Shown: piece after piece, positions 52,518 through 63,446 of the stretch
Position numbering within the stretch: position 1 is the first letter of the stretch
How the letters are laid out: every line of letters begins with the position of its first letter
Source: a virus
DNA length: 64,000 nt
Reading direction: 5' to 3' (one strand)
Virus record (IMG/VR): IMGVR_UViG_3300045971_000577
Location: 305,146 to 369,145 of that record
Program-made: the position numbers and the translations under genes
Notes under the pieces: generated by a model
Database searches by the model: none
What the model saw: the letters and a program-made list of their open reading frames with translations, nothing else
Told to the model about the DNA's origin: nothing

Positions 52518-52774
52518 ACATTAAACCTTAACTTAAAGGCTAAGGCATCCTCAGAGAATCGAAACATATACACAACCATATTCTTATCTGGGAAGTTATT
52601 TACTATGTACCAATTATACTTGCAATGTTCGTTCAGCCATTCGTGGAGCTCGTCTCTGGTGCTTGCGACTAGGTAACGCTTCGTAGTAACCATATAGTTA
52701 AACGTTTCGAGTAAATGTATCGATTCGCTTACAGAATGTACTTCTACCTTGTCATAAGGTTTTGGATTACTCAT
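52514..52774 (-). CDS. Array paralogue 6, FKLRFG-tail family
   Basis: 86 residues. Helix STRDELHEWLNEHCKYNWYI, strand NMVVYMFRF, signature SEDALAFKLRFNV. ATGA overlap with the upstream member. Function unknown. Confidence 0.78.
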   Translation of the reverse strand: MSNPKPYDKVEVHSVSESIHLLETFNYMVTTKRYLVASTRDELHEWLNEHCKYNWYIVNNFPDKNMVVYMFRFSEDALAFKLRFNV

Positions 52775-52974
52775 AATCCAAACCTAAGCTTTATCATAGT
52801 AGCATATTCGGGATTGGTAAAGACGTAGCTTCCACCATGTTGGTCCCATCCGTTCGCCAATGCCGGCGCGCCGAAAGTTCTCCAACAGTAGATATAGAAC
52901 TCCATTTCTACATCCTGCGGAGACACATAGATCTCCCACCGCTTCCTATCTTCCCTATAAGTCAAAGGTCTCAT
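52771..52974 (-). CDS. Array paralogue 5, FKLRFG-tail family
   Basis: 67 residues ending NPEYATMIKLRFGL. Aromatic-rich middle (FYIYCWRTFGAPALANGWDQ). ATGA overlap with the upstream member. Function unknown. Confidence 0.75.
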   Translation of the reverse strand: MRPLTYREDRKRWEIYVSPQDVEMEFYIYCWRTFGAPALANGWDQHGGSYVFTNPEYATMIKLRFGL

Positions 52975-53162
52975 ACACCAAACTTCAACTTAAAGGCAGT
53001 AATGTTTTCTGGGTTGTTATAGAAGAATAGTTCCCACACCCCAGTCCTCGGGCCACTCAGTTCCCAGTTATAATCTATGCCCTGTGTTAGATTTTCATCC
53101 AGCCATCTCAACATAGCATTAGGCGCATAGCCTACAGCAGAATATATAGGACCGTATATCAT
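52971..53162 (-). CDS. Array paralogue 4, FKLRFG-tail family
   Basis: 63 residues, near the minimal unit: helix NAMLRWLDENLTQGIDYNWE, strand GVWELFFYN, signature NPENITAFKLKFGV. ATGA overlap with the upstream member. Function unknown. Confidence 0.78.
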   Translation of the reverse strand: MIYGPIYSAVGYAPNAMLRWLDENLTQGIDYNWELSGPRTGVWELFFYNNPENITAFKLKFGV

Positions 53163-53377
53163 ACACCAAACTTCAGCTTAAAGGCAACCAAATCTTCCTT
53201 GCTATGCAAGTATACGTTTAGAATTTCGACATGCATCTCTACCTGCCACTCCATACTAACAGAAGTAGAAGATTCTTCAATCCACCTTCTAATGCCATTG
53301 TGTAGTTGCCAAAGGTCACGCTTAATCACGCCACCGACGTATTCCCTATCAGCCACAGGATAACGATACATTGTCAT
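53159..53377 (-). CDS. Array paralogue 3, FKLRFG-tail family
   Basis: 72 residues. Helix LWQLHNGIRRWIEESSTSVS, strand MHVEILNVYLH, signature SKEDLVAFKLKFGV. A 15-bp gap separates it from the upstream member. Function unknown. Confidence 0.78.
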   Translation of the reverse strand: MTMYRYPVADREYVGGVIKRDLWQLHNGIRRWIEESSTSVSMEWQVEMHVEILNVYLHSKEDLVAFKLKFGV

Positions 53378-53392
53378 ATGAGTTCTTTCATA

Positions 53393-53662
53393 CTAGACAT
53401 TAAAAGTCAACTTGAATGCAACAAGGTCTTGATCGTCTTCAAAGTATACAGTCATACCTTCAAATGAGTATCTATCATTTAGTGGATCACTTATGCGTAA
53501 CTTCATTCTAATCTTGTTCTTGAGTGCCCATGCTTCTACTTCATACTTGAAAATCCTTACGCTGATATCTTTACTGTTAGATATAGTATAGGTATGATTG
53601 GGCTTGAACCCGTTATTGAATAGTGCCATTGTAGGCTTTGAACGTGTAGCTGAGTTATTCAT
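53393..53662 (-). CDS. Array paralogue 2, FKLRFG-tail family
   Basis: 89 residues from ATG 53662, which overlaps the upstream stop by one base (TAATG). Strand GMTVYFEDD and signature QDLVAFKLTFNV close a Lys/Arg-rich, longer N-terminal part. Function unknown. Confidence 0.76.
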   Translation of the reverse strand: MNNSATRSKPTMALFNNGFKPNHTYTISNSKDISVRIFKYEVEAWALKNKIRMKLRISDPLNDRYSFEGMTVYFEDDQDLVAFKLTFNV

Positions 53663-53931
53663 TATGTGTGTATTCCCCAAATCAGCCGGAACATTAGCAT
53701 ATCCTCTTCAGTAGCAAAGTATATACGCATAGAATAATATATATTAAACTTTCCGATCAGTATAGGAAATACTTCTGGTGCTGTAGACCAATAATGTTTA
53801 GATTTGGTTTCGCAAAGCCGTTGCATCATTTTCAATACCAGATCTCGAATATCAGATCCGGAAAGTTTTTTCACAATGATGAGATTGTGCAGATAATCAA
53901 CCTGATGTAGATAGGTGGTCTGGTCGTGCAT
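53662..53931 (-). CDS. Array paralogue 1 (first gene), FKLRFG-tail family
   Basis: 89 residues from ATG 53931 (MHDQTTYLHQ), preferred because an upstream in-frame start would lie inside the promoter. It ends FATEEDMLMFRLIWG plus IHT. Helix DIRDLVLKMMQRLCETKSKH. ATG lies only 10 bp after the -10 box, so the mRNA leader is very short or absent. Function unknown. Confidence 0.74.
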   Translation of the reverse strand: MHDQTTYLHQVDYLHNLIIVKKLSGSDIRDLVLKMMQRLCETKSKHYWSTAPEVFPILIGKFNIYYSMRIYFATEEDMLMFRLIWGIHT

Positions 53932-53940
53932 TATGCGACT

Positions 53941-53969
53941 ATAATACAAGATCAACTTGGTCAGATCAA
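53941..53969 (-). promoter_or_regulatory. Sigma70-type promoter of the paralogue array
   Basis: TTGATC (53969-53964), 17 bp, TATTAT (53946-53941) on the minus strand. It is the only clear promoter seen before the 3.7-kb array. A GTAA-type repeat array lies 60 bp further upstream. Confidence 0.65.
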
Positions 53970-54028: not shown

Positions 54029-54118
54029 GTTACATCTCTTACAAATCTGTGTGCTGACTGGGATTTTTACGAACTGTTACAACTGTTGCATTTGTTACGT
54101 TTCTTACACCTTTACTGG
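54029..54118 (-). repeat. GTAA/GTTAC repeat array A
   Basis: On the minus strand: GTAAAG, GTAAGA, GTAACA, GCAACA, GTAACA, GTAAAA at 8-10 bp steps, then after a gap GTAAGA and GTAACA followed by TTTTGACG. The outermost box includes the stop codon of the DUF4314-like gene. It carries the same boxes as the early promoters but no good -10. Confidence 0.75.
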
Positions 54119-54337: not shown

Positions 54338-54366
54338 ACTATAGCGCACACCACCCTACACGTCAA
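54338..54366 (-). promoter_or_regulatory. Early promoter (DUF4314-like gene)
   Basis: TTGACG (54366-54361), 17 bp, TATAGT (54343-54338). GTAACA begins exactly 10 bp upstream of the -35 and GTAAGC 10 bp beyond that. Confidence 0.82.
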
Positions 54367-54369
54367 TCA

Positions 54370-54435
54370 CTGTTACATATGCTTACACCTGTAAGCACCT
54401 GTAAGCAAACGTAAGCAGATGTAACAACGGTAAAG
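54370..54435. repeat. GTAA repeat array B with internal inverted symmetry
   Basis: Plus strand: GTTACATATGCTTAC, then GTAAGC, GTAAGC, GTAAGC, GTAACA, GTAAAG at steps of 10, 10, 10 and 9 bp. The left half mirrors the right (TGTTACAT.TGCTTAC against GTAAGCAGATGTAACA). The left half is the upstream region of the early promoter at 54338-54366. Confidence 0.8.
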
Positions 54436-54494
54436 GTCTCGCACTGTGCCCGTCATACCTTGGTGACGCTATGAGGCAACGGTGAGCAAACGAA

Positions 54495-54513
54495 AGGGGC
54501 GTTCGCCGCCCCT
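54495..54513 (-). terminator. Intrinsic terminator
   Basis: Minus strand AGGGGCG-GCGAA-CGCCCCT followed by TTCGTTT. It lies 20 bp after the stop of the gene at 54534. Confidence 0.75.
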
Positions 54514-54533
54514 TGTCTGTACCCGCGCTGGTC

Positions 54534-54737
54534 TTACTTGATGCTGACGAGGACACCGTCCTTCAGCGTGCCCGTGGCGTACCACTTATGGGGTTGCGGG
54601 TAGTGCGGGCCTTCCAGGGACACCTCGCCGTCTTTGGGGCAGGGGAACGGTCCCGGGCTGTGGCAACGGACTTGCTTGCCATCAGCAATGGCACGCTTCA
54701 CTTCGGCCTTGCTCTTGAAGTTGGTATCGGTGTACAT
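54534..54737 (-). CDS. Small early protein
   Basis: 67 residues: MYTDTNFKSKAEVKRAIADG, then VRCHSPGPFPCPKDG, EGPHYPQPHKWYATG and a beta end DGVLVSIK. I recall similar short phage proteins of unknown function. AAGGA before ATG; own promoter and own terminator. Confidence 0.75.
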   Translation of the reverse strand: MYTDTNFKSKAEVKRAIADGKQVRCHSPGPFPCPKDGEVSLEGPHYPQPHKWYATGTLKDGVLVSIK

Positions 54738-54763
54738 GGTGCATTCCTTGTTGCGATGTATGT

Positions 54764-54792
54764 ATTATGCAGCGTGGTGCGCTTGCTGTCAA
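54764..54792 (-). promoter_or_regulatory. Early promoter
   Basis: TTGACA (54792-54787), 17 bp, CATAAT (54769-54764). GTAACA 10 bp and GTAATA 20 bp upstream of the -35. Leader contains CATCGCAACAAGGA. Confidence 0.88.
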
Positions 54793-54924
54793 CCACTGTT
54801 ACATCTTATTACAGCTCGTGCCCGCCACACCAGACCAACCACCAAGTGCGGAAGTCCTCACACCCTGTCAGCGCTCCCTCCCGCATGTACGAGGCGTAGA
54901 AAGCTGGGCTTGCTTGGTGGATAC

Positions 54925-55140
54925 TCACATATCCCCGGGCAGGTAGTTGCAGCGGTTGCGGTAGCACTTGCCGTCCCACTCCGCCACGCTGATCGTATAG
55001 CCGATGCTGAGGAAGAACATCGCTTCGCCCATTGCCGCTGCTTGCCCAATCTCCATGCTGCGGTCTGGGTAGGCTGCGTCGTAGCTGACCGGGTCCCGGA
55101 TGCTGATGCGGGGCTGGGTCACATCGTATGTGGTGCGCAT
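54925..55140 (-). CDS. Small early protein
   Basis: 71 residues from ATG 55140 (MRTTYDVTQPRISIRD), with AAGGAG upstream. The middle helix QAAAMGEAMFFLSIGYTISV is followed by WDGKCYRNRCNYLPGDM with two cysteines. Longer frames upstream run through the promoter and are not genic. Function unknown. Confidence 0.72.
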   Translation of the reverse strand: MRTTYDVTQPRISIRDPVSYDAAYPDRSMEIGQAAAMGEAMFFLSIGYTISVAEWDGKCYRNRCNYLPGDM

Positions 55141-55168
55141 GATTGCTGCTCCTTGTTGCGATGTTGTT

Positions 55169-55197
55169 ACTATAATGCAACGAACAGGGGTTGTCAA
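55169..55197 (-). promoter_or_regulatory. Early promoter with -35 palindrome
   Basis: TTGACA (55197-55192), 17 bp, TATAGT (55174-55169). The -35 is centred in a perfect 23-bp inverted repeat (55183-55205, AACAGGGGTTG-T-CAACCCCTGTT). GTAACA 10 bp upstream. Confidence 0.88.
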
Positions 55198-55225
55198 CCC
55201 CTGTTACATCTGTCTCGCGTGCTGC

Positions 55226-55513
55226 TCAGCAGACCTTGGCGAAGTAATGCACGACCACAGTGTGCATCGTCTGGGTCTGCCCGTCGGCGTACACGGTGCC
55301 GGGTTGCACTTCACATTCCGCGTCGGGTGAGGCGCACAAATTACGTTCCAGCCGTTGCTTGATTCCCACGGCGCGGTAGGCGTTGTGCTGCTGCGGTGAC
55401 ATGCAACGGAACACAGTCGCGCCGCTTTCCTTCGTGACCAGCACGGCCACATCCGAGGCCTTGATTCCTTCCATCTTGTACGCGAGCAGGATGATTTGGA
55501 TGACGACTTGCAT
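55226..55513 (-). CDS. Small early protein
   Basis: 95 residues. A hydrophobic N-terminus (MQVVIQIILLAYKMEGIKAS), then beta-rich ASDVAVLVTKESGATVFRCM and a helix HNAYRAVGIKQRLERNL. Three cysteines. AAAGGA before ATG. Function unknown. Confidence 0.72.
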   Translation of the reverse strand: MQVVIQIILLAYKMEGIKASDVAVLVTKESGATVFRCMSPQQHNAYRAVGIKQRLERNLCASPDAECEVQPGTVYADGQTQTMHTVVVHYFAKVC

Positions 55514-55552
55514 GTTGTTTCCTTTGTGTTGCTGCGTTGTTGCAGTGTTTAA

Positions 55553-55581
55553 ACTATAACGCAGGTTGAATGCTTATGCAA
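55553..55581 (-). promoter_or_regulatory. Early promoter
   Basis: TTGCAT (55581-55576), 17 bp, TATAGT (55558-55553). GTAACA 10 bp and GTAAGT 20 bp upstream of the -35. Confidence 0.82.
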
Positions 55582-55620
55582 GCACTGTTACATTTACTTA
55601 CAAGCTGCCGGCCGGCATAA

Positions 55621-56125
55621 GCCTCGAGGTTAAGGTTAAAGACCTTAGCCCAGTGTCTAGCCCTAGTAGAGGCTTTTGCAACTTAGACTAATTTTTAGAT
55701 CGCAGCTTTAAGTCTGCTGCCGGCGAGCCTCGTGTATGCTCAAGGTCAACCGCGGTTACGTTATGAGGCTTATCGCAATAAGTCTTAGATTCTTGTTGAC
55801 CTGCCCGGACTTTTGCGATAAAATGACATTTATTGCTTGCGCAGAATGACCTACGGCTCTACACGAAAAATAGCCTCACAATGCAAAAGGCAACTACAAG
55901 TGGTCTATAGATCAACGTGTGAGGCTTTGCTGCAAAGCCCTAGATTCTTAGATCAGTTGTCTGTAAGCCTCACAGACGCGTTTTAAGATCACAAGCGGTC
56001 GCTTGCTCAGCTCTTGAGGCTTTGCGGGCAGAGCTCTGTCTGTGTGGTCAAGTGCGAGCAAACCCCTGTAAGCCTCACTTGTGGCCCAGTTACTGGGCAA
56101 AGACCTAATCTTTAGTTAGCGAGGC
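55621..56125. repeat. Array of five GCCTC/GAGGC inverted-repeat elements
   Basis: Elements 55621-55673, 55727-55769, 55873-55925, 55967-56020 and 56072-56125; lengths 53, 43, 53, 54 and 54 bp. The 55873 element has a perfect 8-bp outer stem (GCCTCACA/TGTGAGGC). The interiors differ but often contain GATC or GGTC. Confidence 0.75.
55796..55824 (+). promoter_or_regulatory. Possible rightward promoter into the repeat region
   Basis: TTGACC (55796-55801), 17 bp, TAAAAT (55819-55824), plus strand. It points through three GCCTC/GAGGC elements towards the hairpins at 56142-56201; no gene lies on this strand, so any product would be an RNA. It lacks the GTAACA box. Confidence 0.5.
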
Positions 56126-56141
56126 AGCGGTGGTCAAACGA

Positions 56142-56163
56142 CTGGGCACCCGTAAGTGCCCAG
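56142..56163. repeat. Strong hairpin
   Basis: CTGGGCAC-CCGTAA-GTGCCCAG, 8-bp perfect stem with a 6-base loop, no T-run. It is next to the terminator at 56184. Confidence 0.75.
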
Positions 56164-56183
56164 TGCTCAAAAGAACCGCTTGT

Positions 56184-56201
56184 AGGGGCGTTTAGCCCCC
56201 T
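56184..56201 (-). terminator. Intrinsic terminator (GC hairpin)
   Basis: Minus strand AGGGGGC-TAAAC-GCCCCT, just past the stop of the gene at 56206. The following T-run is poor. Confidence 0.6.
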
Positions 56202-56205
56202 TGCC

Positions 56206-56433
56206 CTACCAGGGCTCGCACATATTGGGAAACGTGTTCGTCTCCTCCAGCACCGTCAACGCCCGCGCCGCTGCTGCGTAGGCCTCGTCTTCCGTGTCCC
56301 AGATCGGCGCGCTGGCGCAGTTGTTGGCGAGGTATTCCTGGCCCGGGTCGCCAGCAAATGTGGAGAAGCACGAACGCCACTTGCCGTTGGCTGCCTGTTC
56401 GGGCGCGCTGACTTCGGTGCGGATCTTGATCAT
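56206..56433 (-). CDS. Small early protein
   Basis: 75 residues: MIKIRTEVSAPEQAANGKWR, a Cys, then IWDTEDEAYAAAARALTVLE, which looks like a beta-sheet plus helix. AAGGAG before ATG. Function unknown. Confidence 0.72.
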   Translation of the reverse strand: MIKIRTEVSAPEQAANGKWRSCFSTFAGDPGQEYLANNCASAPIWDTEDEAYAAAARALTVLEETNTFPNMCEPW

Positions 56434-56459
56434 GCTGTGCTCCTTGTTGCGATGTTGTT

Positions 56460-56488
56460 ACTATAACGGAGTTGGGAGGCTCCGTCAA
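56460..56488 (-). promoter_or_regulatory. Early promoter
   Basis: TTGACG (56488-56483), 17 bp, TATAGT (56465-56460). GTAACA 10 bp upstream; leader CATCGCAACAAGGAG. Confidence 0.87.
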
Positions 56489-56500
56489 GCACTGTTACAT

Positions 56501-56701
56501 CTATTTCTTCACAGCGTCAGCAACGGCTTCGTAGGAGTCAGTCGCCACCTCGATGGTCTTGTCCGTCGCCACCGAGATCGCCTTCGAGGCTTTCTTCACC
56601 TCGGACTGGTTGTCCTTGTAGAGGATGATGCCTTGGCCCGCCAGCAGCAGGGCAACGATGCTGGCGATGGCGCCCACAAACACATTCTTGAACGTCTTCA
56701 T
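56501..56701 (-). CDS. Small single-pass membrane protein
   Basis: 66 residues. NVFVGAIASIVALLLAGQGI (about 6-25) is a transmembrane helix or signal anchor; the rest is a charged amphipathic helix (EVKKASKAISVATDKTIEVA). The topology suggests an inner-membrane protein with a periplasmic or cytoplasmic helical tail. AAGGA before ATG 56701. Confidence 0.72.
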   Translation of the reverse strand: MKTFKNVFVGAIASIVALLLAGQGIILYKDNQSEVKKASKAISVATDKTIEVATDSYEAVADAVKK

Positions 56702-56728
56702 CTGTATTCCTTAAGTTGCAATGTCACA

Positions 56729-56757
56729 ATAATAGCTGCATACGGGCCGTCTGTCAA
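56729..56757 (-). promoter_or_regulatory. Early promoter
   Basis: TTGACA (56757-56752), 17 bp, TATTAT (56734-56729). GTAATA 10 bp and GTAAGC 20 bp upstream; the upstream gene's ATG-TAA end lies within the box. Confidence 0.86.
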
Positions 56758-56763
56758 CCCTTA

Positions 56764-56943
56764 TTACATCTGCTTACACCACTTCTCTTCCTCGCACAAC
56801 AGCTCGTCGTCAGTGGCGTCGTCATTGAGGTAACGCTCACCGTCTTCAAAATCGCCTTCCTCACCGTCAGCTTCGTACTGTTCACGCATTGCGTGGATGA
56901 TGCGCTCGGCCTTCAAGGCGCGCTCTTGCCTGGTGAGTGCCAT
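56764..56943 (-). CDS. Small acidic early protein
   Basis: 59 residues from ATG 56943 (MALTRQERALKAERII), AAGGAG upstream. Basic helix first, then a strongly acidic half (EADGEEGDFEDGERYLNDD) and a CKQM end. Its last codons, ATG TAA, form part of the next promoter's upstream box. Function unknown. Confidence 0.72.
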   Translation of the reverse strand: MALTRQERALKAERIIHAMREQYEADGEEGDFEDGERYLNDDATDDELLCEEEKWCKQM

Positions 56944-56970
56944 TGTTGGCTCCTTGCTGTTGATGTATGT

Positions 56971-56999
56971 ATTATGCAGGCTGGAACAGGGGCTGTCAA
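56971..56999 (-). promoter_or_regulatory. Early promoter with near-palindromic -35 region
   Basis: TTGACA (56999-56994), 17 bp, CATAAT (56976-56971). GTAACA 10 bp upstream. AACAGGGG-x-TGTCA-x-CCCCTGTT surrounds the -35, like the promoter at 55169. Confidence 0.88.
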
Positions 57000-57005
57000 C
57001 CCCTG

Positions 57006-57116
57006 TTACATCTTTCCAGTGACACGCTTCCACAGCTGGTGGAAGAAGCGCCTCACGCGGTTCTGCATCAGCTCGGCTGCGATTTCGAGGCGAAACTTCA
57101 TGTAGTCAGTGTTCAT
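57006..57116 (-). CDS. Very small basic early protein (36 residues)
   Basis: ATG 57116 to TAA 57006. The sequence starts MNTDYMKFRLEIAAELMQ and has basic helix RVRRFFHQLWKRVTG. It begins 1 bp after the stop of the upstream gene, and its own final ATG-TAA is part of the next promoter's GTAACA box. An amphipathic helix binding nucleic acid or membrane is possible. Confidence 0.55.
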   Translation of the reverse strand: MNTDYMKFRLEIAAELMQNRVRRFFHQLWKRVTGKM

Positions 57117-57117
57117 G

Positions 57118-57315
57118 TTAGGCCTGCTGGATGTGTTGCGCGACGATGCGGGCGGCGCAGTCCTCGCCCTGGGCCATGTCGATCGCGCCCTGCTCCACGA
57201 GGTTGTAGCACAAGTCGCCGCCGTCGTAGAAGCCGTACTGCTCCTCCACAATCTTGTCGACCTTCTCCGAGAAGTCGTGCATGACTGCGTGCTGTGCCAT
57301 TGTGGTGCGGGGCAT
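57118..57315 (-). CDS. Small acidic early protein
   Basis: 65 residues: MPRTTMAQHAVMHDFSEKVD, VEEQYGFYDGGDLCYN, helix GEDCAARIVAQHIQQA. AAGGAG before ATG. Function unknown. Confidence 0.72.
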   Translation of the reverse strand: MPRTTMAQHAVMHDFSEKVDKIVEEQYGFYDGGDLCYNLVEQGAIDMAQGEDCAARIVAQHIQQA

Positions 57316-57341
57316 GCTGTGCTCCTTGTTGCGATGTATGT

Positions 57342-57370
57342 ATTATGCGCGTAGAAGCAGCAGTTGTCAA
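57342..57370 (-). promoter_or_regulatory. Early promoter without the upstream box
   Basis: TTGACA (57370-57365), 17 bp, CATAAT (57347-57342). The -35 contains the stop codon (TGA) of the upstream gene; no GTAACA box. Leader CATCGCAACAAGGAG. Confidence 0.85.
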
Positions 57371-57612
57371 CCGTAAATCTTCAAGGCCTCATCCATGACG
57401 ATCGTCTCCACACCGCCATCCAGAGGCATCAGGTGGTGCTGCTGGAACAGGACTTCCACGCCGGCGGCCAGCAGCACAGCGGGCATGAGCTTGTACAGAG
57501 GCTGCTGGCCGTTATCCATTTCGCACATCAGGATGTGAGCAACGGTGCGGCACGACCCCACTGGGCAACGGGCGTCACCCAGAATCATTACACGTTGTCC
57601 TATTGCGAGCAT
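57367..57612 (-). CDS. Small early protein
   Basis: 81 residues from ATG 57612 (MLAIGQRVMILGDARC), AAGGAG upstream. The start recalls a small beta-barrel (IGQRVMILGD, VAHILMCEMDNGQQPLYKLM), somewhat like the DUF4314-type protein at 54104, followed by hydrophobic AVLLAAGVEVLFQQHHLMPL. Function unknown. Confidence 0.7.
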   Translation of the reverse strand: MLAIGQRVMILGDARCPVGSCRTVAHILMCEMDNGQQPLYKLMPAVLLAAGVEVLFQQHHLMPLDGGVETIVMDEALKIYG

Positions 57613-57637
57613 GTTTGCTCCTTGCTGCGATGTGTGT

Positions 57638-57666
57638 ACTTTATTATATAGTGGCTCCAGTGTCAA
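57638..57666 (-). promoter_or_regulatory. Early promoter
   Basis: TTGACA (57666-57661), 17 bp, TAAAGT (57643-57638); an overlapping TATAAT lies at 57648-57643. GTAACA 10 bp and GTAAGC 20 bp upstream of the -35. Confidence 0.78.
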
Positions 57667-57693
57667 GCACTGTTACATCTGCTTACGCCTGCA

Positions 57694-57779
57694 CTGCCTC
57701 ATTCATCGGTCCAAGACCATTGAGCCACTACATGCGAGGCTGCTGCTGCCTCATTCATCGGTCCAAGACCATTGAGCCA
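57694..57779. repeat. 34-bp direct repeat pair
   Basis: Copies at 57694-57727 and 57746-57779, identical, each holding CGGTCCAAGACCATTGAG. The first copy and the following GAGGC (57736-57740) also make a 45-bp GCCTC...GAGGC element. It lies in the divergent gap between minus- and plus-strand early genes. Confidence 0.85.
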
Positions 57780-57831
57780 ACGCGGTGAGACCGCGTGACG
57801 ATCCGCCAGATGTAACAAGGTGTAACAACGG

Positions 57832-57859
57832 TTGCATTGATGCGCAGTGGTGTTATAGT
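57832..57859 (+). promoter_or_regulatory. Rightward early promoter (outer)
   Basis: TTGCAT (57832-57837), 16 bp, TATAGT (57854-57859), plus strand. GTAACA begins about 10 and 20 bp upstream of the -35, as in the leftward promoters. Confidence 0.7.
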
Positions 57860-57865
57860 TATGAC

Positions 57866-57991
57866 ATGGAGACAGCAGTGCAACAGCAAGCAAACAAGCA
57901 AAACTGTTACACTTTAGTTGTTGTCCAAAGCGCCCCAAAGAGTTATAGTTTAGTCACTGCAACACACGCTGCAAAGCAGCAAGAAAGGTAG
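57866..57991 (+). CDS. Doubtful 41-codon frame or leader peptide
   Basis: ATG 57866 to TAG 57991, beginning METAVQQQANKQNCYTL. It starts 7 bp after the outer promoter's -10, like the leaderless early genes, but the inner promoter for the next gene lies inside it. It could be a leaderless peptide or a chance frame. Confidence 0.25.
   Translation: METAVQQQANKQNCYTLVVVQSAPKSYSLVTATHAAKQQER
57921..57949 (+). promoter_or_regulatory. Rightward early promoter (inner)
   Basis: TTGTCC (57921-57926), 17 bp, TATAGT (57944-57949), plus strand, 45 bp before ATG 57995. Confidence 0.65.
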
Positions 57992-57994
57992 ACC

Positions 57995-58534
57995 ATGGAC
58001 AAGGGAATCCGCCCGTACGTGAACGCCAAGTTCATCGAGCTCAACGCCCAGCGCAAGGCGGGCACGCTGACCAACACGCAGTTCCGCAAGAACGTGATGT
58101 GCGACGCGATGGAAGCGTTTGGCATCACCCTGGCGAGCGCCGCGACGCACTACAACCATGCGTTCCAGGCGGTGAAGGCGGCGACACCGACGGAAGTGGA
58201 AGGCCTGGGCCGCCCCGACGACAAGAAGGGCGGGCGCAAGCGCAAGGAAGTCGCAGCCCCGACGGTGGCCAGCGTCATCCCCGTGGACCCGGCCGCGCTG
58301 CTGCAAGGGCTGCTGAATGCCCCGGCTGCGGTGCAGGTGGAGACGGCGCAAGCCGTGGAAACGCCCGCAGCCGACCCCAACGACGCCGGCGAGACGGGCG
58401 AAGTGCAGACGGTGTTCAACGTGTGCAAGAAGTCCGACGGCAGCGTGGTGGCAGAAGGCGTGAGCCTGGAAGAAGCCAAGGCGCTGGTGGAAGCGGCGGC
58501 CAAGGCCAAGAAGGCCAAGCTGTACTGGGTCTAA
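57995..58534 (+). CDS. Early protein with MDKGIR domain and LEEAK C-terminal domain
   Basis: 179 residues. The N-terminal domain (1-90) has MDKGIRPYVNAKFIELNAQ, FRKNVMCDAMEAFGITLASAATHYNHAFQ and a basic GRPDDKKGGRKRKE end. It is shared with the 142-residue protein at 61642. After an Ala/Pro-rich linker, the C-terminal 45 residues (VFNVCKKSDGSVVAEGVSLE) form a second small domain. The helical N-terminus with basic tail suggests nucleic-acid binding. One of only two genes on the plus strand here; terminator follows. Confidence 0.78.
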   Translation: MDKGIRPYVNAKFIELNAQRKAGTLTNTQFRKNVMCDAMEAFGITLASAATHYNHAFQAVKAATPTEVEGLGRPDDKKGGRKRKEVAAPTVASVIPVDPAALLQGLLNAPAAVQVETAQAVETPAADPNDAGETGEVQTVFNVCKKSDGSVVAEGVSLEEAKALVEAAAKAKKAKLYWV

Positions 58535-58549
58535 GCACCCAAGGTGGGA

Positions 58550-58567
58550 AGGGGGCGCAAGCCCCCT
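58550..58567 (+). terminator. Intrinsic terminator
   Basis: AGGGGGC-GCAA-GCCCCCT then ATT, 15 bp after the stop of the MDKGIR-domain gene. Confidence 0.72.
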
Positions 58568-58613
58568 ATTCGCGCGACCAAACCCAGGTCAGAATGCAAG
58601 AGAGGAATCCAAA

Positions 58614-58808
58614 ATGATCAGTGTGATTCTGGTTGATGGAACTACCCGCATGCACATGCCGAGCAGCCGGTGGTCATTGGACGTGCAGGCCTCGTTGGCT
58701 CAGAAGGGCCACCAGCTGCAAGACCTCGGACCTGCTCCGGAGAACGACCCGCGCGATGAGGCCGAGAAGGCACGCGTCATGGAGCTTCTCGACTCCACAG
58801 GGCTGTAG
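58614..58808 (+). CDS. Small early protein
   Basis: 64 residues: beta start MISVILVDGTTRMHMPSSRW, then ASLAQKGHQLQDLGPAPEND and helix EKARVMELLD. AGAGGA before ATG. It lies after the terminator of the previous gene and has no clear promoter of its own, so expression may depend on read-through. Function unknown. Confidence 0.65.
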   Translation: MISVILVDGTTRMHMPSSRWSLDVQASLAQKGHQLQDLGPAPENDPRDEAEKARVMELLDSTGL

Positions 58809-58816
58809 CAAGATCA

Positions 58817-58860
58817 GCCTCGGAACACGTCGTGAGATCGCTGATCCGACCTTCCGAGGC
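58817..58860. repeat. GCCTC/GAGGC element, 9-bp stem
   Basis: GCCTCGGAA...TTCCGAGGC, 44 bp, perfect 9-bp outer stem, interior with GATCG and GATCCGACC. Confidence 0.85.
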
Positions 58861-58873
58861 TACCCTGCGACAT

Positions 58874-58918
58874 GCCTCGGGCGCGCTGTCGAGGCCCGTT
58901 GATCCTACCGCCCGAGGC
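58874..58918. repeat. GCCTC/GAGGC element, 9-bp stem
   Basis: GCCTCGGGC...GCCCGAGGC, 45 bp, interior with TTGATCCTACC. It is directly followed by the GTAAC repeats. Confidence 0.85.
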
Positions 58919-59133
58919 ATGTAACAAGATGTAACGGGGCAAGATGTAACTGGATGTAACAATCCAGTTCCGAGATTGAAACCCGTGCAGGCTTTCTACA
59001 CAGGAAACCTATTCAAGAGAAAAGGCCTATTAGGCCTAATCTCGTTTCCGAATCACACTACCCGGGATGCTTGCAGCTAGCGTTTAGCTATGCATTAGCC
59101 ATTTTCTGGCTAATACATTCGGCTACTTCGTGC

Positions 59134-59382
59134 TTACAGCACAAAGCCGTTGACGCACGGGGACGGGGCAAGCTCGGGGTCGCTAAACATGTCCGCCAGC
59201 ACCATGTCCATCTGGCAGTCATCCGTCTCGGGATCGTCAGCTGCCAGAACAGCATCGCCAAGGGCAGCGGCAACGCGCTTGCGTTGCCGCTCGTTGATCA
59301 CGATCGTGTACGTCCCGGGGTCGGGCATGCTGTGCTCGATGGGCATCTCGTAGGGCTTGAGCGTTGCGGGCGTGATGGGCAT
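59134..59382 (-). CDS. Small acidic early protein
   Basis: 82 residues: PGTYTIVINERQRKRVAAAL begins a strand-helix unit, then an acidic stretch DPETDDCQMDMVLADMFSDP. AGGAC before ATG 59382. The N-terminal 20 residues are Pro/Met-rich. Function unknown. Confidence 0.72.
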   Translation of the reverse strand: MPITPATLKPYEMPIEHSMPDPGTYTIVINERQRKRVAAALGDAVLAADDPETDDCQMDMVLADMFSDPELAPSPCVNGFVL

Positions 59383-59566
59383 GCTGTGTCCTAGTTGCTA
59401 TGCTTACAGTATAATGCAGAGCAGGAAGCAATGCAACCTGCTGTTTGATCTCAAGCTGCAAAGGCCTCTAGGCGTTTAGGCTCATAGGCCAAGATCCTGT
59501 GCGAGAACTTGTCGTAGGATTTGGACCTGTATTTCCAAATCTGGTCACGAATTTTAAATCGGAAAG
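59383..59566. other. Short gene-free stretch with hairpin
   Basis: Contains the promoter at 59408-59436 and hairpin GATTTGGA-x8-TCCAAATC (59518-59541). No gene seen. Confidence 0.65.
59408..59436 (-). promoter_or_regulatory. Early promoter without the upstream box
   Basis: TTGCAT (59436-59431), 17 bp, TATACT (59413-59408). No GTAACA box. Confidence 0.72.
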
Positions 59567-59812
59567 TTAGGCAGTGTCTTTTGACCGCATGCACTCGCAC
59601 TCGTGTTGCTCAAGCTGAGTAAGCGTATCCGGCTTTGCTTCGCGTGCATTCGCTGGGTCGTTAGCCCACTTGCGGTCTTGCTCTACAAAATGCTTCTCGC
59701 CGTACACACAAAGCCCGACCGCCAGCAGGGCGAGGAGTGCCCCGCCCATGTGTGCAGTTGTTAGACCGTACAGGGCAATGAAGCCAAACAGGAGTGCCAA
59801 GCTGCGCATCAT
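59567..59812 (-). CDS. Small membrane protein, two transmembrane segments
   Basis: 81 residues from ATG 59812, overlapping the upstream stop by 4 bp. SLALLFGFIALYGLTT and GGALLALLAVGLCVYG are adjacent membrane helices. The cytoplasmic tail is charged and carries CEC near the end. Function unknown; last of a three-gene operon. Confidence 0.72.
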   Translation of the reverse strand: MMRSLALLFGFIALYGLTTAHMGGALLALLAVGLCVYGEKHFVEQDRKWANDPANAREAKPDTLTQLEQHECECMRSKDTA

Positions 59813-60051
59813 GACTTCCTGAACACCACGATGTTGGGCGCGACCTGCTCGATGAAGTACCAGGCGCCAAACAAGAACGCCAGGATGTTGATCACAGGGC
59901 AGAGAGTTACTGTGAGTCCAATGAGCAGGTTTGACAGCGTCAAGGTCTTCTCGCTCTCCAGCGTGGCATGCTTCATCTCGTAATAGGTGCAGAAGCCGAG
60001 CATGCCACCAGTCAGCAGCACGCACGCCAGGTAGAGCAAAAAGAAGCTCAT
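59809..60051 (-). CDS. Small membrane protein, two transmembrane segments
   Basis: 80 residues from ATG 60051 (MSFFLLYLACVLLTGG), overlapping the upstream stop by 4 bp. Membrane helices at about 2-20 and 42-66 (LLIGLTVTLCPVINILAFLF). Paired with the following membrane protein gene. Function unknown. Confidence 0.72.
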   Translation of the reverse strand: MSFFLLYLACVLLTGGMLGFCTYYEMKHATLESEKTLTLSNLLIGLTVTLCPVINILAFLFGAWYFIEQVAPNIVVFRKS

Positions 60052-60326
60052 GCCATCAGCCCCTCGTAGATGTGCTTGTTGTTGTTGATCAGCGCCAGCA
60101 TCTCGCAAATTTGCTTGAACACACGCACGGCCTCCTCGTCGAACTCCTTGTACAAGAAGTCAACGTCGGTGATCTGCGCCCAAGGTACGTCGACATCGTA
60201 CCGGTTCCAATTGGGCCTGTGCAAGTCGTCAAGCATCACATTCACCCCGCGATGGTGGATGTCCATGACGATTACGCGAGTGTCGTCACTCAGCGTCACG
60301 TTCTCAGTGCGGGTGATTGTGTTCAT
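60048..60326 (-). CDS. Small early protein, probably leaderless
   Basis: 92 residues: MNTITRTENVTLSDDTRVIV, then DIHHRGVNVMLDDL and a helical acidic C-terminus (EEAVRVFKQICEMLALINNN). ATG begins 7 bp after the -10 box, so there is no room for a ribosome site in the transcript. Function unknown. Confidence 0.72.
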   Translation of the reverse strand: MNTITRTENVTLSDDTRVIVMDIHHRGVNVMLDDLHRPNWNRYDVDVPWAQITDVDFLYKEFDEEAVRVFKQICEMLALINNNKHIYEGLMA

Positions 60327-60332
60327 GTTTGT

Positions 60333-60361
60333 ATTGTATTAGTCCTGCTGCGGTTTGTCAA
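60333..60361 (-). promoter_or_regulatory. Early promoter for a leaderless gene
   Basis: TTGACA (60361-60356), 17 bp, TACAAT (60338-60333), then 6 bp and ATG. It lies within the 3' end of the upstream 41-residue gene. Confidence 0.82.
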
Positions 60362-60464
60362 CAGGCACTTCGGTTTGTTTGGGCTGTTCCTGACCTTCCA
60401 TTTGTTCCAGGAAGTCGTCAAGGTCATTGTCGGGAATGCTGCCGTGTTCTTGTTGTTTGGTCAT
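60339..60464 (-). CDS. Very small acidic early protein (41 residues)
   Basis: ATG 60464 to TAA 60339: MTKQQEHGSIPDNDLDDFLE, then Gln/Pro-rich tail ending PQQD. AGGAGAAGGAA directly before ATG and an own consensus promoter make it convincing despite its size. Function unknown. Confidence 0.7.
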   Translation of the reverse strand: MTKQQEHGSIPDNDLDDFLEQMEGQEQPKQTEVPVDKPQQD

Positions 60465-60484
60465 TTCCTTCTCCTGCTGTTAGT

Positions 60485-60513
60485 ATTATACTTAGCAGAA
60501 TGGAAATAGTCAA
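60485..60513 (-). promoter_or_regulatory. Early promoter without the upstream box
   Basis: TTGACT (60513-60508), 17 bp, TATAAT (60490-60485). Confidence 0.85.
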
Positions 60514-60908
60514 CGGCGGGCTATCTGATCCTGCGGCCACTTCGCCCTTACCTGGTAGCGGCGTAGCTCTGCAGGAGTGCTGAACTGTTGGTGTGCATTG
60601 TAGAACCAATACTGCTGAGCTTCACGCTCGTGCAGGATCACAATCGGCTCATACCGGAACTCGGGGAACTGGGTTGCCGTAACATCGACTACATGATCAG
60701 CAGTGATTACGAACACATGGGCGCCCACATCGTCTTCGGACATGTGCATCTCTGCCTCGATCCCTGCTACCTTGAGTCGCTTGTGCAACTCCGAGGAAGC
60801 GATTGCACAGAACCCGCAGAGCGTGTGCTTCGAGTACAGCGGGTCCTGCGCTTCGGCCCACTCACGCACCTCTTGCGCGATGTTGCGAATGCGTTGCAGC
60901 GTGCTCAT
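60510..60908 (-). CDS. Transglutaminase/papain-like fold protein
   Basis: 132 residues from ATG 60908, which overlaps the upstream stop by 4 bp. LCGFCAIASSELHKRLKVAG (Cys helix, about 35-55), GAHVFVITADHVVDVT (His and Asp, about 71-86) and ATQFPEF give the Cys-His-Asp order of transglutaminase-like enzymes. These act as peptidases, amidases or transglutaminases. The target is unknown; a host-modifying role in early infection is inferred. Confidence 0.65.
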   Translation of the reverse strand: MSTLQRIRNIAQEVREWAEAQDPLYSKHTLCGFCAIASSELHKRLKVAGIEAEMHMSEDDVGAHVFVITADHVVDVTATQFPEFRYEPIVILHEREAQQYWFYNAHQQFSTPAELRRYQVRAKWPQDQIARR

Positions 60909-61126
60909 CCGAAGCAGATGCCCTTCTTGACCATCGTGTCCGGCGACAGCGCGGAGCACACGATCTTGTGCTGGGTGGTATTGTAGAGCAGGTAGTCCTT
61001 CATGCAACCTGCAGCACGGTACAGCAGCACCATGCGCGATTCAGCGATGTCGACGCTCTCACCGCGGTGGATGAGTTTGTCCTTCTCCATGCTGTCGTCT
61101 GCATCGGTTTCGTAGACTTCGTACAT
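60905..61126 (-). CDS. Small early protein
   Basis: 73 residues from ATG 61126 (MYEVYETDADDSMEKD), AAGGAG upstream. VDIAESRMVLLYRAAGCMKD forms the core; several cysteines. It is co-transcribed with the transglutaminase-like gene. Function unknown. Confidence 0.72.
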   Translation of the reverse strand: MYEVYETDADDSMEKDKLIHRGESVDIAESRMVLLYRAAGCMKDYLLYNTTQHKIVCSALSPDTMVKKGICFG

Positions 61127-61152
61127 AGCCAACTCCTTGCTGCGATGTATGT

Positions 61153-61181
61153 ATTATGCAGGGACTAGCCCTGCATGTCTA
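61153..61181 (-). promoter_or_regulatory. Early promoter with palindromic spacer
   Basis: TAGACA (61181-61176), 17 bp, CATAAT (61158-61153). The spacer is TGCAGGG-CTAGT-CCCTGCA, shared in form with the promoter at 62466. No GTAACA box; AAAGTGG precedes the -35 instead. Confidence 0.82.
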
Positions 61182-61187
61182 CCACTT

Positions 61188-61469
61188 TTAGGCGGCCGGC
61201 CCCACGCCGCGGATGTAGTAGCTCAAGTACGTGGCCCGCGTGCTGAAGCCCTTTGCGGTCAGTTCCTTGTTGATTTCTTCCACCACAGGGCGGATGTGCT
61301 GGGCGCTGCCGACATCGAACGCCACGTAGCGGACGTTGCAACCGCGGCGCTCACGCGGGGCCAGGCCCACCGGCAAGTCGGTGTAGCTCTTCATGTACTT
61401 GATACGTGCGTTGTCCAACGCCTTGCGCACCACTGCGCGGAACTCCAGGGTAGTTGCAGGATAGGGCAT
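61188..61469 (-). CDS. Small early protein
   Basis: 93 residues from ATG 61469 (MPYPATTLEFRAVVRK). Helix-rich N-terminus, then CNVRYVAFDVGSAQHIRPVV and ATYLSYYIRGVG. AGGAC before ATG. Function unknown. Confidence 0.72.
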   Translation of the reverse strand: MPYPATTLEFRAVVRKALDNARIKYMKSYTDLPVGLAPRERRGCNVRYVAFDVGSAQHIRPVVEEINKELTAKGFSTRATYLSYYIRGVGPAA

Positions 61470-61497
61470 TGTGTGTCCTGTATGTTGCGATGTATGT

Positions 61498-61526
61498 ATT
61501 ATGCGCTGATAGGACACACAGGTCAA
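61498..61526 (-). promoter_or_regulatory. Early promoter
   Basis: TTGACC (61526-61521), 17 bp, CATAAT (61503-61498). GTAACA 10 bp upstream; leader CATCGCAACA. Confidence 0.86.
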
Positions 61527-61543
61527 CCTCTGTTACATCTCTG

Positions 61544-61587
61544 GCCTCACAGCATGTTTTGCGATCGATCAAGATGCATTGCGAGGC
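61544..61587. repeat. GCCTC/GAGGC element
   Basis: 44 bp, outer GCCTC/GAGGC, interior GCGATCGATCAAG. It lies between an early promoter and the terminator of the gene at 61642. Confidence 0.72.
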
Positions 61588-61603
61588 ATCTTAGGCCAAA
61601 CGA

Positions 61604-61623
61604 AAAGGGGCCGTAGCCCCTTT
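61604..61623 (-). terminator. Intrinsic terminator
   Basis: Minus strand AAAGGGGC-TACG-GCCCCTTT then TCGTTT, 18 bp after the stop of the gene at 61642. Confidence 0.82.
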
Positions 61624-61641
61624 GTGCCCTTGCTTGTTGCG

Positions 61642-62070
61642 TTAGGCTGCCGTGCCTTCCAGCACCACGGGCGTCACCGCCAGTTGCAGCAGCTCGCAAT
61701 CCGTCACATCGGACATCGTGGCTGGCGTGCCTTCCAGCAGCAGGGCAGCCGTTTCAGCCGGGTCCAGCGCGACGATCGGGATGCCAGCAGCGGTCTCGGT
61801 CTTCTTCTTGCGCCCGCCGTTGTTCTTGCCTTCCGGGCGGCCCAGGCCGCTGACCAGTTCCGGCGTCGCGGCCTTCACCAGTTGGAGCGCGTCGTTGTAG
61901 TGCGTCGCCGCGGATGCCAGCGTGCAGCCGAACTGTTCCATCAGCGTCGCCATGACGTGCTTGCGGAACGTGGTGTTGCCCTTGTCGCCAGTGAACGCCT
62001 GGCCCTTGCGGCGCAGTTCGTTTTGCTCGACGAACAGGTTGCGAGCGAAGCTGCGAATTCCCTTATCCAT
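61642..62070 (-). CDS. Early protein with MDKGIR domain (paralogue)
   Basis: 142 residues. Residues 1-92 are paralogous to the protein at 57995: MDKGIRSFARNLFVEQNELR, FRKHVMATLMEQFGCTLASAATHYNDALQLVKAATPE and GLGRP...GGRKKK. The C-terminal 50 residues differ (LDPAETAALLLEGTPA). A helical domain with a basic tail again suggests nucleic-acid binding. AAGGAG before ATG; own promoter and terminator. Encoded opposite to its paralogue. Confidence 0.78.
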   Translation of the reverse strand: MDKGIRSFARNLFVEQNELRRKGQAFTGDKGNTTFRKHVMATLMEQFGCTLASAATHYNDALQLVKAATPELVSGLGRPEGKNNGGRKKKTETAAGIPIVALDPAETAALLLEGTPATMSDVTDCELLQLAVTPVVLEGTAA

Positions 62071-62114
62071 TTGTGACTCCTTCTTGCTACTGTGTAGCGT
62101 GTTGCGATGTAGTT

Positions 62115-62143
62115 ACTATAGCAGCGGTGGGCCTAGTGGTCTA
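62115..62143 (-). promoter_or_regulatory. Early promoter
   Basis: TAGACC (62143-62138), 17 bp, TATAGT (62120-62115). GTGGT-AG-ACCAC covers the -35; GTAACA 10 bp upstream. Confidence 0.82.
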
Positions 62144-62158
62144 CCACTGTTACATCTT

Positions 62159-62437
62159 TTAGGCCAGCAGCACCACCGTGAGTTGCACGCGGAACGTGAT
62201 GCCCAGGTGGTTGAACAACTCCTCGAGGATGAAATCTGCAAGGTCGACGTCACAACGCATGAGGCTGTCGACGTACTGATCGAAACCCGGGATGTCGTCC
62301 TTCATCAGCGGGTCCCGCATGCAGTCGAGGCTGATGAGCACCTTCTGCTTGCCTTCCGGGCTGAAGCTGTTGCTGTCGTCCTGTTCGAAACGGCGACGCA
62401 GGTTGCTGATGCTGTGAATGACAGTGTCGACTGACAT
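62159..62437 (-). CDS. Small acidic helical early protein
   Basis: 92 residues: MSVDTVIHSISNLRRRFEQD, LISLDCMRDPLMKDDIPGFD and helix VDLADFILEELFNHLGITFR. Weak ribosome site. Function unknown. Confidence 0.7.
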   Translation of the reverse strand: MSVDTVIHSISNLRRRFEQDDSNSFSPEGKQKVLISLDCMRDPLMKDDIPGFDQYVDSLMRCDVDLADFILEELFNHLGITFRVQLTVVLLA

Positions 62438-62465
62438 GGCGTTGCTTTGTTGCTGCGATGTATAT

Positions 62466-62494
62466 ATTATGCAGGGCTGGTCCCTGCATGTCTA
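62466..62494 (-). promoter_or_regulatory. Early promoter with palindromic spacer
   Basis: TAGACA (62494-62489), 17 bp, CATAAT (62471-62466). Spacer TGCAGGG-ACCAG-CCCTGCA, as at 61153. AAAGTGG before the -35, no GTAACA. Confidence 0.82.
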
Positions 62495-62504
62495 CCACTT
62501 TATG

Positions 62505-63368
62505 TCAGCCCATGAAGCTCAACGGAATGCCAACCTTGGCGCAGTTTGCCTTGAAGGTCCCACGTGCCAGCTGGCGATCGTAGCCGTTGGCGGCAATCAT
62601 GGCAGCGATGATCGTTTCGTAACCGTGGCCAGCGCGGTAACCCTGCAGCATGATGCGACGGCTGATGCTCGCCTTGCTTTCACCTGCAGCGGGCAGCACG
62701 TTGGGCGCAGGCAGGATGCAGCGCGGAGCAGGGGGCAGCAAGCGCGGAGCAACAGCGGGCACATACACACGGGCTTGCACAGGCAGCGCAGGGGCCACGG
62801 TCATCGTGGGCTGCTTCACGATGGGTGCCGCAAGCGTCTGCCCACGCGCACCAACGATGCTGTACGCACAGGCTGCGTGGATGCTGCCCTTGTTGTGGCG
62901 CAGGCGGATGGTAGTGCCCAGCTGGATCTTGCGGTGGTGACGGTCACCAACGCGCACCGTGTGCCCCTTGTCGCTGGTGTATTCGTACGTGATGCCCTTG
63001 CCGTACACCACTTCCTCTTGGTGACGCGTGCGACCGCTGCCGCCCAGGGCGAGGCAGATGCGCTCCCAGCCCGCGTCGTGGTTCTTGCCCAAGTCCGGCT
63101 GGATGAAGCACAGGATGTGCGCGTATTCGTGCGGCACAGTGCTGTTGAGCACGTGATCGAAAGCTTCACGCGACAGCATGTCGGTGTTGAACTTCACGAT
63201 GTAGTTGGACATCACCGGGTCGCGGTACTTCAGCCCGTGTGCCTTGCCAGCCGCCTTGCCCTTCAGGTCGAAGCTGACGCGCACGCGGGACATGTCCACG
63301 TTGTAGAGCTGATACGCACGGGCAACGACTTCCTTGCACTTGGCAAGGATTTGTTCACGGGGCGTCAT
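62505..63368 (-). CDS. SprT-like zinc metalloprotease with C-terminal helical domain
   Basis: 287 residues. NSTVPHEYAHILCFI holds HExxH (His-Glu-x-x-His, about residues 74-78) and NHDAGWERICLALGG the third ligand region, as in SprT/Spartan proteases. QEEVVYGKGITYEYTSDKGH follows. After a Pro/Ala-rich linker, the C-terminal 55 residues (ISRRIMLQGYRAGHGYETII) form a helix-turn-helix-like domain. SprT proteases digest DNA-bound proteins; here it could remove host DNA-binding proteins or crosslinks. CAGGAG before ATG. Confidence 0.82.
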   Translation of the reverse strand: MTPREQILAKCKEVVARAYQLYNVDMSRVRVSFDLKGKAAGKAHGLKYRDPVMSNYIVKFNTDMLSREAFDHVLNSTVPHEYAHILCFIQPDLGKNHDAGWERICLALGGSGRTRHQEEVVYGKGITYEYTSDKGHTVRVGDRHHRKIQLGTTIRLRHNKGSIHAACAYSIVGARGQTLAAPIVKQPTMTVAPALPVQARVYVPAVAPRLLPPAPRCILPAPNVLPAAGESKASISRRIMLQGYRAGHGYETIIAAMIAANGYDRQLARGTFKANCAKVGIPLSFMG

Positions 63369-63400
63369 TTTTGCTTGCTCCTGTTTGCTGCGATATATGT

Positions 63401-63429
63401 ATTATGCAGTCAGGAACCGGTCTGGTCGA
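63401..63429 (-). promoter_or_regulatory. Early promoter
   Basis: TCGACC (63429-63424), 17 bp, CATAAT (63406-63401). TGGTCGACCA covers the -35; GTAACA 10 bp upstream. Confidence 0.78.
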
Positions 63430-63446
63430 CCACTGTTACATCTGCC

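What the first reader, a model, noticed from the sequence alone, without database searches (positions are those of the whole stretch)
54338..63429. Early promoters carry a GTAACA box phased exactly 10 bp upstream of the -35
At least 12 early promoters (54338, 54764, 55169, 55553, 56460, 56729 with GTAATA, 56971, 57638, 57832, 61498, 62115, 63401) have GTAAC(A) starting 10 bp before the -35. Several have a second GTAA 10 bp further up. One helical turn between boxes and -35 suggests a DNA-binding protein contacting the same face as RNA polymerase, or a sequence-specific extended promoter element. It is not a typical A/T-rich UP element.
Basis: seen in the sequence. Interest (0 to 1): 0.78.

Follow-up and report, generated by a model that had tools for sequence, protein, structure and literature searches.

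The report
Phage early promoters with paired boxes
A giant uncultured bacteriophage and its relatives place a short GTAAC-type DNA word, often doubled exactly one DNA turn apart, in front of a subset of their early-type promoters, which looks like the docking site of an as yet untested regulator, perhaps one made by the phage itself.

Summary
All 12 listed promoters carry GTAA(C/T)A starting exactly 10 bp before the -35; 6 of 12 have a second GTAA 10 bp further up. Promoters chosen without using the box show it at that offset in 10 of 18 within a 13.6-kb island and in 0 of 15 elsewhere.

It extends beyond this genome. In eight related jumbo-phage records, TGTAA peaks 32/33 and 42/43 bp upstream of -10 hexamers (28, 38, 26, 20; background about 9), and TGTAA pairs peak at 10-bp spacing (44 against 4-12). 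A few T5-like phage contigs show it too. Two positions one helical turn apart argue for a protein on RNA polymerase's face, not a fixed RNA polymerase element.

Best candidate reader: a phage gene (57995-58534) of a new family. All 9 group-1 genes have the box in their own upstream region; 0 of 19 paralogs have the tandem. This suggests autoregulation. Against it: T5-like phages have the box but no such gene, and the motif resembles OmpR/CpxR-type host sites. Binding, direction of control and timing are untested.

The parts
54338..54386 (-). boxed promoter: GTAAGC-N4-GTAACA-N4-TTGACG-N17-TATAGT
54764..54812 (-). boxed promoter, second box GTAATA; TTGACA, CATAAT
55169..55207 (-). boxed promoter, single box; TTGACA, TATAGT
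55553..55601 (-). boxed promoter, second box GTAAGT; weak -35 TTGCAT, TATAGT
56460..56498 (-). boxed promoter, single box; TTGACG, TATAGT
56729..56777 (-). boxed promoter, proximal GTAATA, second box GTAAGC; TTGACA, TATTAT
56971..57009 (-). boxed promoter, single box; TTGACA, CATAAT
57638..57686 (-). boxed promoter, second box GTAAGC; TTGACA, TAAAGT
57812..57859 (+). boxed promoter of the candidate regulator gene: GTAACA-N4-GTAACA-N4-TTGCAT ... TATAGT
57906..57911 (+). inverted box GTTACA upstream of a second promoter-like site (-35 at 57921) of the same gene; a GTTACA also lies upstream of the second promoter-like site in L011
57995..58534 (+). group-1 gene, 179 aa: predicted N-terminal three-helix domain, GGRK linker, C-terminal b-b-a-b domain; candidate reader of the box
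58921..58961 (+). array of four GTAAC boxes (steps 10, 15, 10) without a recognisable promoter
54029..54098 (-). array of GTAAC boxes at the left border of the island, without a recognisable promoter
61498..61536 (-). boxed promoter, single box; TTGACC, CATAAT
61642..62070 (-). second group-1 gene (142 aa), driven by the boxed promoter at 62115-62153
62115..62153 (-). boxed promoter, single box; TAGACC, TATAGT
63401..63439 (-). boxed promoter of the SprT-like gene 62505-63368; TCGACC, CATAAT
57342..57370 (-). comparison: unboxed early-type promoter (others at 60513, 61181, 62494, 63980)

Best explanation
The GTAAC(A) box is half of a tandem, 10-bp-period direct-repeat operator. A sequence-specific DNA-binding protein sits there on the same DNA face as host sigma-70 RNA polymerase and helps it, most likely as an activator, at a subset of early-type promoters. 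One box (near -46) supports a good -35; two boxes (near -46 and -56) go with several poor -35 sequences. When the pair sits one turn further out (42/43 bp from the -10), the same face is kept. Shown: the boxes, their phasing, their conservation in relatives, and the association with group-1 genes.
For: Offset exactly 10 in 10 of 18 box-blind island promoters, 0 of 15 outside. TGTAA counts at 32/33/42/43 bp upstream of 5,781 -10 hexamers in eight related records are 28/38/26/20, against about 9 per offset and a downstream maximum of 16. TGTAA pairs: 44 at 10-bp period against 4-12 at the other nine spacings tested; 45 against 6 for the reversed pattern in 10 whole records. Group-1 genes: 9 of 9 have a box or tandem within 260 bp upstream (7 of 9 tandem); paralog groups 2-4: tandem 0 of 19, single box 1 of 19 (related genomes, so the Fisher values 3e-5 and 1.4e-6 overstate independence). 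In the group-1 upstream alignment of seven phages the first TGTAA is the only invariant run. Some tandem-boxed promoters lack a usable -35 (G005 229094 and 230308). A strict tandem-plus-promoter pattern hits 17 viral stretches but only 2 stretches in 84,980 bacterial and archaeal species genomes, and those two look like chance. No RNA polymerase beta' family hit in four jumbo records, so host polymerase is expected.
Against: T5-like phage contigs carry the same boxed promoter but no group-1 gene by the same profile (0 of 19 records). The N-terminal domain of the group-1 protein finds no confident fold match (best VIA Z 8.3, within the noise range), and no Pfam, PHROG or NCBIfam family. Most own boxed promoters keep a good -35 and should not need an activator. 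The link between tandem boxes and weak -35 is only suggestive: weak in 7 of 11 tandem, 3 of 11 single, 39 of 120 unboxed; Fisher p 0.05, rank test p 0.10. A protein made after infection could not act at the first moments. Repression is not excluded.
Confidence: 0.45

Rival explanations
1. The reader is a host response regulator of the OmpR/PhoB type (CpxR-like), and the phages borrow it to strengthen early promoters as soon as DNA enters.
For: OmpR-family proteins typically bind direct repeats, and OmpR uses two tandem 10-bp half-sites (passages of PMC7380067). The CpxR site is GTAAA-(N)4-8-GTAAA (passages of PMC5063474), and record G005 has it literally, four times at N5. YycF sites look like TGTAAC-N5-TGTAAT (PMC5405149). 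PhoP activates from boxes shifted by one or two turns on the same face (PMC3335776). Two phage lineages without a shared regulator have the box. Early timing fits.
Against: The strict arrangement is essentially absent from bacterial genomes (2 chance-like stretches), though the pattern demanded a phage-like promoter. A host factor does not explain why group-1 genes are always boxed (9 of 9) while few other promoters are. The own island has GTAAC/GTAAG, not GTAAA.
Confidence: 0.3
2. The box is an extended promoter element read directly by RNA polymerase (alpha C-terminal domain or sigma region 4), as a G/C-containing variant of the UP element.
For: Positions near -46 and -56 match the two known UP subsites (recalled). 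Unboxed promoters of the same phages have A-rich DNA at the same place.
Against: GTAACA is not an A-tract. 14 bases upstream of the -35 are nearly invariant in own boxed promoters, against loose conservation in unboxed ones. Only a subset of promoters carries it. PA5oct, a relative by its baseplate hub protein, has none of the tandem pattern.
Confidence: 0.12
3. The box-binding protein is a repressor or late shut-off factor that closes these promoters after the first minutes, with autoregulation as negative feedback.
For: The group-1 genes are boxed; own boxed promoters mostly have good -35 and -10 sequences, as repressible promoters do.
Against: The boxes lie upstream of the -35 rather than over it or the start; some tandem-boxed promoters in relatives have no usable -35.
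Confidence: 0.12

Closest known systems
OmpR/PhoB-family operators, in particular CpxR boxes (GTAAA-N4-8-GTAAA) and OmpR tandem 10-bp half-sites
   Same: Direct repeat of a GTAA word at about one helical turn, upstream of sigma-70 promoters; positions shifted by whole turns are tolerated, as for PhoP (PMC3335776, PMC5063474, PMC7380067).
   Different: The own boxes are GTAAC/GTAAG at exactly 10 bp; no PF00486 protein was found in the phage; the strict arrangement is not a bacterial promoter class.
Lambda CII and its TTGC direct repeats
   Same: A phage regulator reading a direct repeat on the face of RNA polymerase to activate promoters with poor -35s (the straddling of the -35 is stated in PMC3335776; the rest is recalled).
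   Different: Here the repeats lie upstream of the -35 instead of straddling it; the candidate protein has no detectable match to named families.
UP elements
   Same: Same distance from the -35 as the proximal and distal subsites (recalled).
   Different: Sequence-specific GTAAC words instead of A-tracts.
Phage dispersed operator regulons such as the stoperators of mycobacteriophage L5 (recalled)
   Same: One short word repeated at many phage promoters, probably under one phage regulator.
   Different: Placed at a fixed helical phase upstream of promoters; no sign of lysogeny was looked for or found.

Membership tests
CpxR/OmpR-type operator | direct repeat matching GTAAA-(N)4-8-GTAAA | tested here: not met
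   own early region (block window plus 40 kb): GTAAA-N5-GTAAA 0, GTAAC-N5-GTAAC 4; met in relative G005 (4) and G001 (3)
CpxR/OmpR-type operator | phage encodes an OmpR-type winged-helix regulator (PF00486) | tested here: not met
   0 matches at E 0.1 in the whole record, controls ring in 11 of 14
CpxR/OmpR-type operator | bound by the host's response regulator | not testable with these tools
   host unknown; no binding assay
Lambda CII-type activated promoter | direct repeats straddle the -35 hexamer | tested here: not met
   boxes start 10 and 20 bp upstream of the -35
UP element | A/T-tract subsites at about -46 to -38 and -57 to -47 | tested here: not met
   position fits, sequence is AGATGTAACAGTGG
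Extended RNA polymerase promoter element | single fixed distance to the core promoter | tested here: not met
   two distances from the -10, 32/33 and 42/43
Autoregulated phage regulator and its regulon | the regulator's own gene carries the operator | tested here: met
   9 of 9 group-1 genes; tandem in 0 of 19 paralogs
Autoregulated phage regulator and its regulon | regulator has a DNA-binding fold | tested here: inconclusive
   confident three-helix domain (pLDDT about 90), no clear fold match
Autoregulated phage regulator and its regulon | regulator occurs wherever the operator occurs | tested here: not met
   absent from the T5-like and other boxed contigs, 0 of 19; many of these are fragments
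Autoregulated phage regulator and its regulon | protein binds the box | not testable with these tools
   needs a binding assay

The most novel reading that the evidence does not exclude
A previously undescribed family of phage regulators (three-helix N-terminal domain, GGRK linker, L7/L12-like C-terminal domain), with several paralogs per jumbo phage, reads a tandem 10-bp GTAAC repeat on the RNA polymerase face and runs an autoregulated early regulon. The word differs between phages (GTAAC in this one, GTAAA in G005), so the family may be a natural series of related specificities.
Probability: 0.38. Interest if true: 0.65.

Novelty: new variant of a known kind. Interest (0 to 1): 0.52.

Why it matters
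Jumbo phages without their own RNA polymerase must steer the host enzyme, and how they divide their many sigma-70-type early promoters into classes is little known. Here a conserved, testable operator and a candidate regulator sit in one 13.6-kb island, shared with relatives and partly with an unrelated phage lineage. If it is host-made, it shows phages from two lineages exploiting the same host signalling protein.

Tried and rejected
Rejected as a stand-alone story: the single 16-base pattern. With up to 3 mismatches it gives 107 matches against 66 expected, so the evidence rests on box-blind tests instead. Rejected as reader: a phage OmpR-type winged helix and the D5/GcrA-like HTH of the T5-like phages, which is in 6 of 6 of those T5-like records but in 0 of 8 jumbo records. 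Comparing all open frames of the T5-like contigs with the jumbo frames found shared genes but no shared regulator. Scanning bacterial genomes for group-1 relatives found none; tblastn in phage records found none. Fold searches gave no confident match; absence from these lists excludes nothing. Weak -35 as a mark of tandem boxes was tested and is only suggestive. PA5oct as a relative with the same boxes: none. Rfam: nothing at gathering scores. Paper searches for an existing description gave no paper on this element. The library holds open-licence papers only, so this is not proof of absence. Papers seen: passages of PMC7380067, PMC5405149, PMC11773190 (not relevant), PMC7824862, PMC13282480, PMC5063474 and PMC3335776; all others as search listings only. 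Recalled and not from a call: UP-element subsite positions, details of CII, L5 stoperators. An earlier count gave the control as 9; the table adds to 6, and the report uses 6.
Full report
Setting. The window is bases 305146-369145 of a 369,145-base virus record. Its last 127 bases repeat the first 127 of the record, so the record closes on itself. Tail, baseplate-hub and SbcC-like genes mark it as a tailed phage, and the hub protein's best match is the Pseudomonas jumbo phage Paride (44% identity; PA5oct close behind). From about 54,000 to 3,300 bases past the origin, GC rises to 54-63%, against about 42% before it. This 13.6-kb island holds short, mostly minus-strand genes, each with a sigma-70-type promoter and a shared leader (TGCATAATACATACATCGCAACAAGGAG and variants).

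The observation. Six of 12 have a second GTAA at 20 bp. Three more boxed promoters follow past the window end. Choosing promoters without looking at the box gives 18 in the island. GTAA[CT] occurs upstream of them at offset 10 in ten cases, at offset 20 in one, and nowhere else in 40 bp; 15 promoters outside the island have none. AGATGTAACA occurs 16 times in the genome, 14 of them in the island, and 10 of the 16 have a -10 in register. It does also occur in three arrays without a recognisable promoter, at both borders and in the middle of the island (54029-54098, 58921-58961, and record positions about 3234-3258).

Two promoter classes. Own unboxed promoters carry TTTCAAA-like A-rich DNA at the place of the box. 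Boxed ones carry AGATGTAACAGTGG nearly without variation. The box therefore replaces, rather than adds to, the usual upstream DNA of a subset.

Relatives. A protein of the island (57995-58534) led to related contigs. In ten whole records TGTAA-N5-TGTAA occurs 45 times against 6 for the reversed pattern. In 961 kb from eight records (five whole, three in part, chosen around their early regions), TGTAA was counted upstream of 5,781 -10-like hexamers: 28 and 38 at 32 and 33 bp, 26 and 20 at 42 and 43 bp, about 9 elsewhere, and at most 16 in the downstream control. TGTAA pairs show 44 cases at 10-bp period against 4-12 at the nine other spacings tested. Record G006 has a series of boxed promoters with weak -35s such as TTGCA or TTGTG, and G005 has two boxed promoters with no recognisable -35. 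Taken over all leader-defined promoters the link of tandem boxes with weak -35 is only suggestive (7 of 11 tandem, 3 of 11 single, 39 of 120 unboxed).

The candidate reader. The 57995 protein belongs to a family with five copies in this genome (a sixth, marginal match at E 0.02 covers only the C-terminal part) and several in each relative. It has a confident three-helix N-terminal domain with the invariant stretch AATHYN on the third helix, a GGRK linker, and a C-terminal domain resembling that of ribosomal protein L7/L12 (VIA Z 5.6, rmsd 1.5 over 45 residues, weak). No family library names it, and fold searches of the N-terminal domain are inconclusive. Nine group-1 genes in seven phages were checked: all nine have a box, seven of them a tandem, within 260 bp upstream. 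Nineteen genes of the other paralog groups have no tandem and one single box. In five relatives (G001-G005) the box nearest the -10 of the group-1 gene sits at 42/43 bp; in the own phage it sits at 32 with a partner at 42. The alignment of seven group-1 upstream regions leaves the first TGTAA as the only invariant run. An operator that always sits before one regulator-like gene, while few other promoters in the same phages have it, is the usual sign of autoregulation. The phages are related, so the counts are not independent.

Evidence that does not fit. A scan of viral contigs for TGTAACA-N3-TGTAACA-N4-TTG gave 55 stretches, of which 21 have a -10 in register. Twelve of these are one T5-like lineage: L115, one of them, matches Vibrio phages at 49% by its terminase, and six of six records tested carry a D5-like HTH. 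L080, which has a terminase small subunit resembling that of L115 by eye, has three boxed promoters. Nineteen boxed records, including this lineage, have no group-1 gene, and the D5-like protein is absent from eight jumbo records. So either the box is read by a host protein, or different phage proteins read the same word. In favour of a host protein: the word resembles sites of OmpR-family regulators. CpxR sites are GTAAA-(N)4-8-GTAAA (PMC5063474, passages), OmpR uses two tandem 10-bp half-sites (PMC7380067, passages), and PhoP works from boxes moved by whole turns (PMC3335776, passages). Against it: a strict tandem-plus-promoter pattern gave only two stretches in 84,980 bacterial and archaeal species genomes, both AT-rich and chance-like, and a host protein does not explain the group-1 association.

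Verdict. The best reading is a tandem direct-repeat operator for a same-face regulator of host sigma-70 RNA polymerase, most likely an activator, with the phage group-1 protein as first candidate (confidence about 0.45) and a host OmpR-type protein as the main rival (0.3). Binding, direction of control and timing need experiments. As a kind of system it is a variant of known direct-repeat activator promoters. The regulon, its phage distribution and the candidate regulator family appear undescribed in the open-licence papers searched.

Noticed in passing
window 49968-53955 (-): About 16 short tandem open frames share a C-terminal tail like (D/E)xxAFKLKFGV; another tandem paralog family lies at L009 4200-6060.
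   Followed up: no
window 57995-58534, residues 140-179: The predicted C-terminal domain resembles the C-terminal domain of ribosomal protein L7/L12 (VIA Z 5.6, rmsd 1.5); weak evidence.
   Followed up: partly
window 55197, 61181, 62494 (-35 positions): Some early promoters hold an inverted repeat with 8-bp arms around the -35 or in the spacer up to the -10 (shuffles reaching it: 0 or 1 of 200); most promoters do not.
   Followed up: partly
L115 13035-13085 (-), and the same place in G010 and G011: In T5-like phages the conserved boxed promoter lies between two D5-like HTH genes and points against them, as if making an antisense or small RNA.
   Followed up: no
record G000 230564-230692 (-): A sigma-70 region 4 match over the curated cut-off: the phage seems to encode its own sigma factor for later promoters.
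   Followed up: no
window 54029-54098, 58921-58961; L009 about 3234-3258: GTAAC arrays without a recognisable promoter at both borders and the middle of the island.
   Followed up: partly
G010-G012 and jumbo records: T5-like and jumbo phages share several genes at 45-56% identity (for example G012 11813-12844 with G003 34381-35394, 56%), suggesting gene exchange and perhaps a common host group.
   Followed up: no
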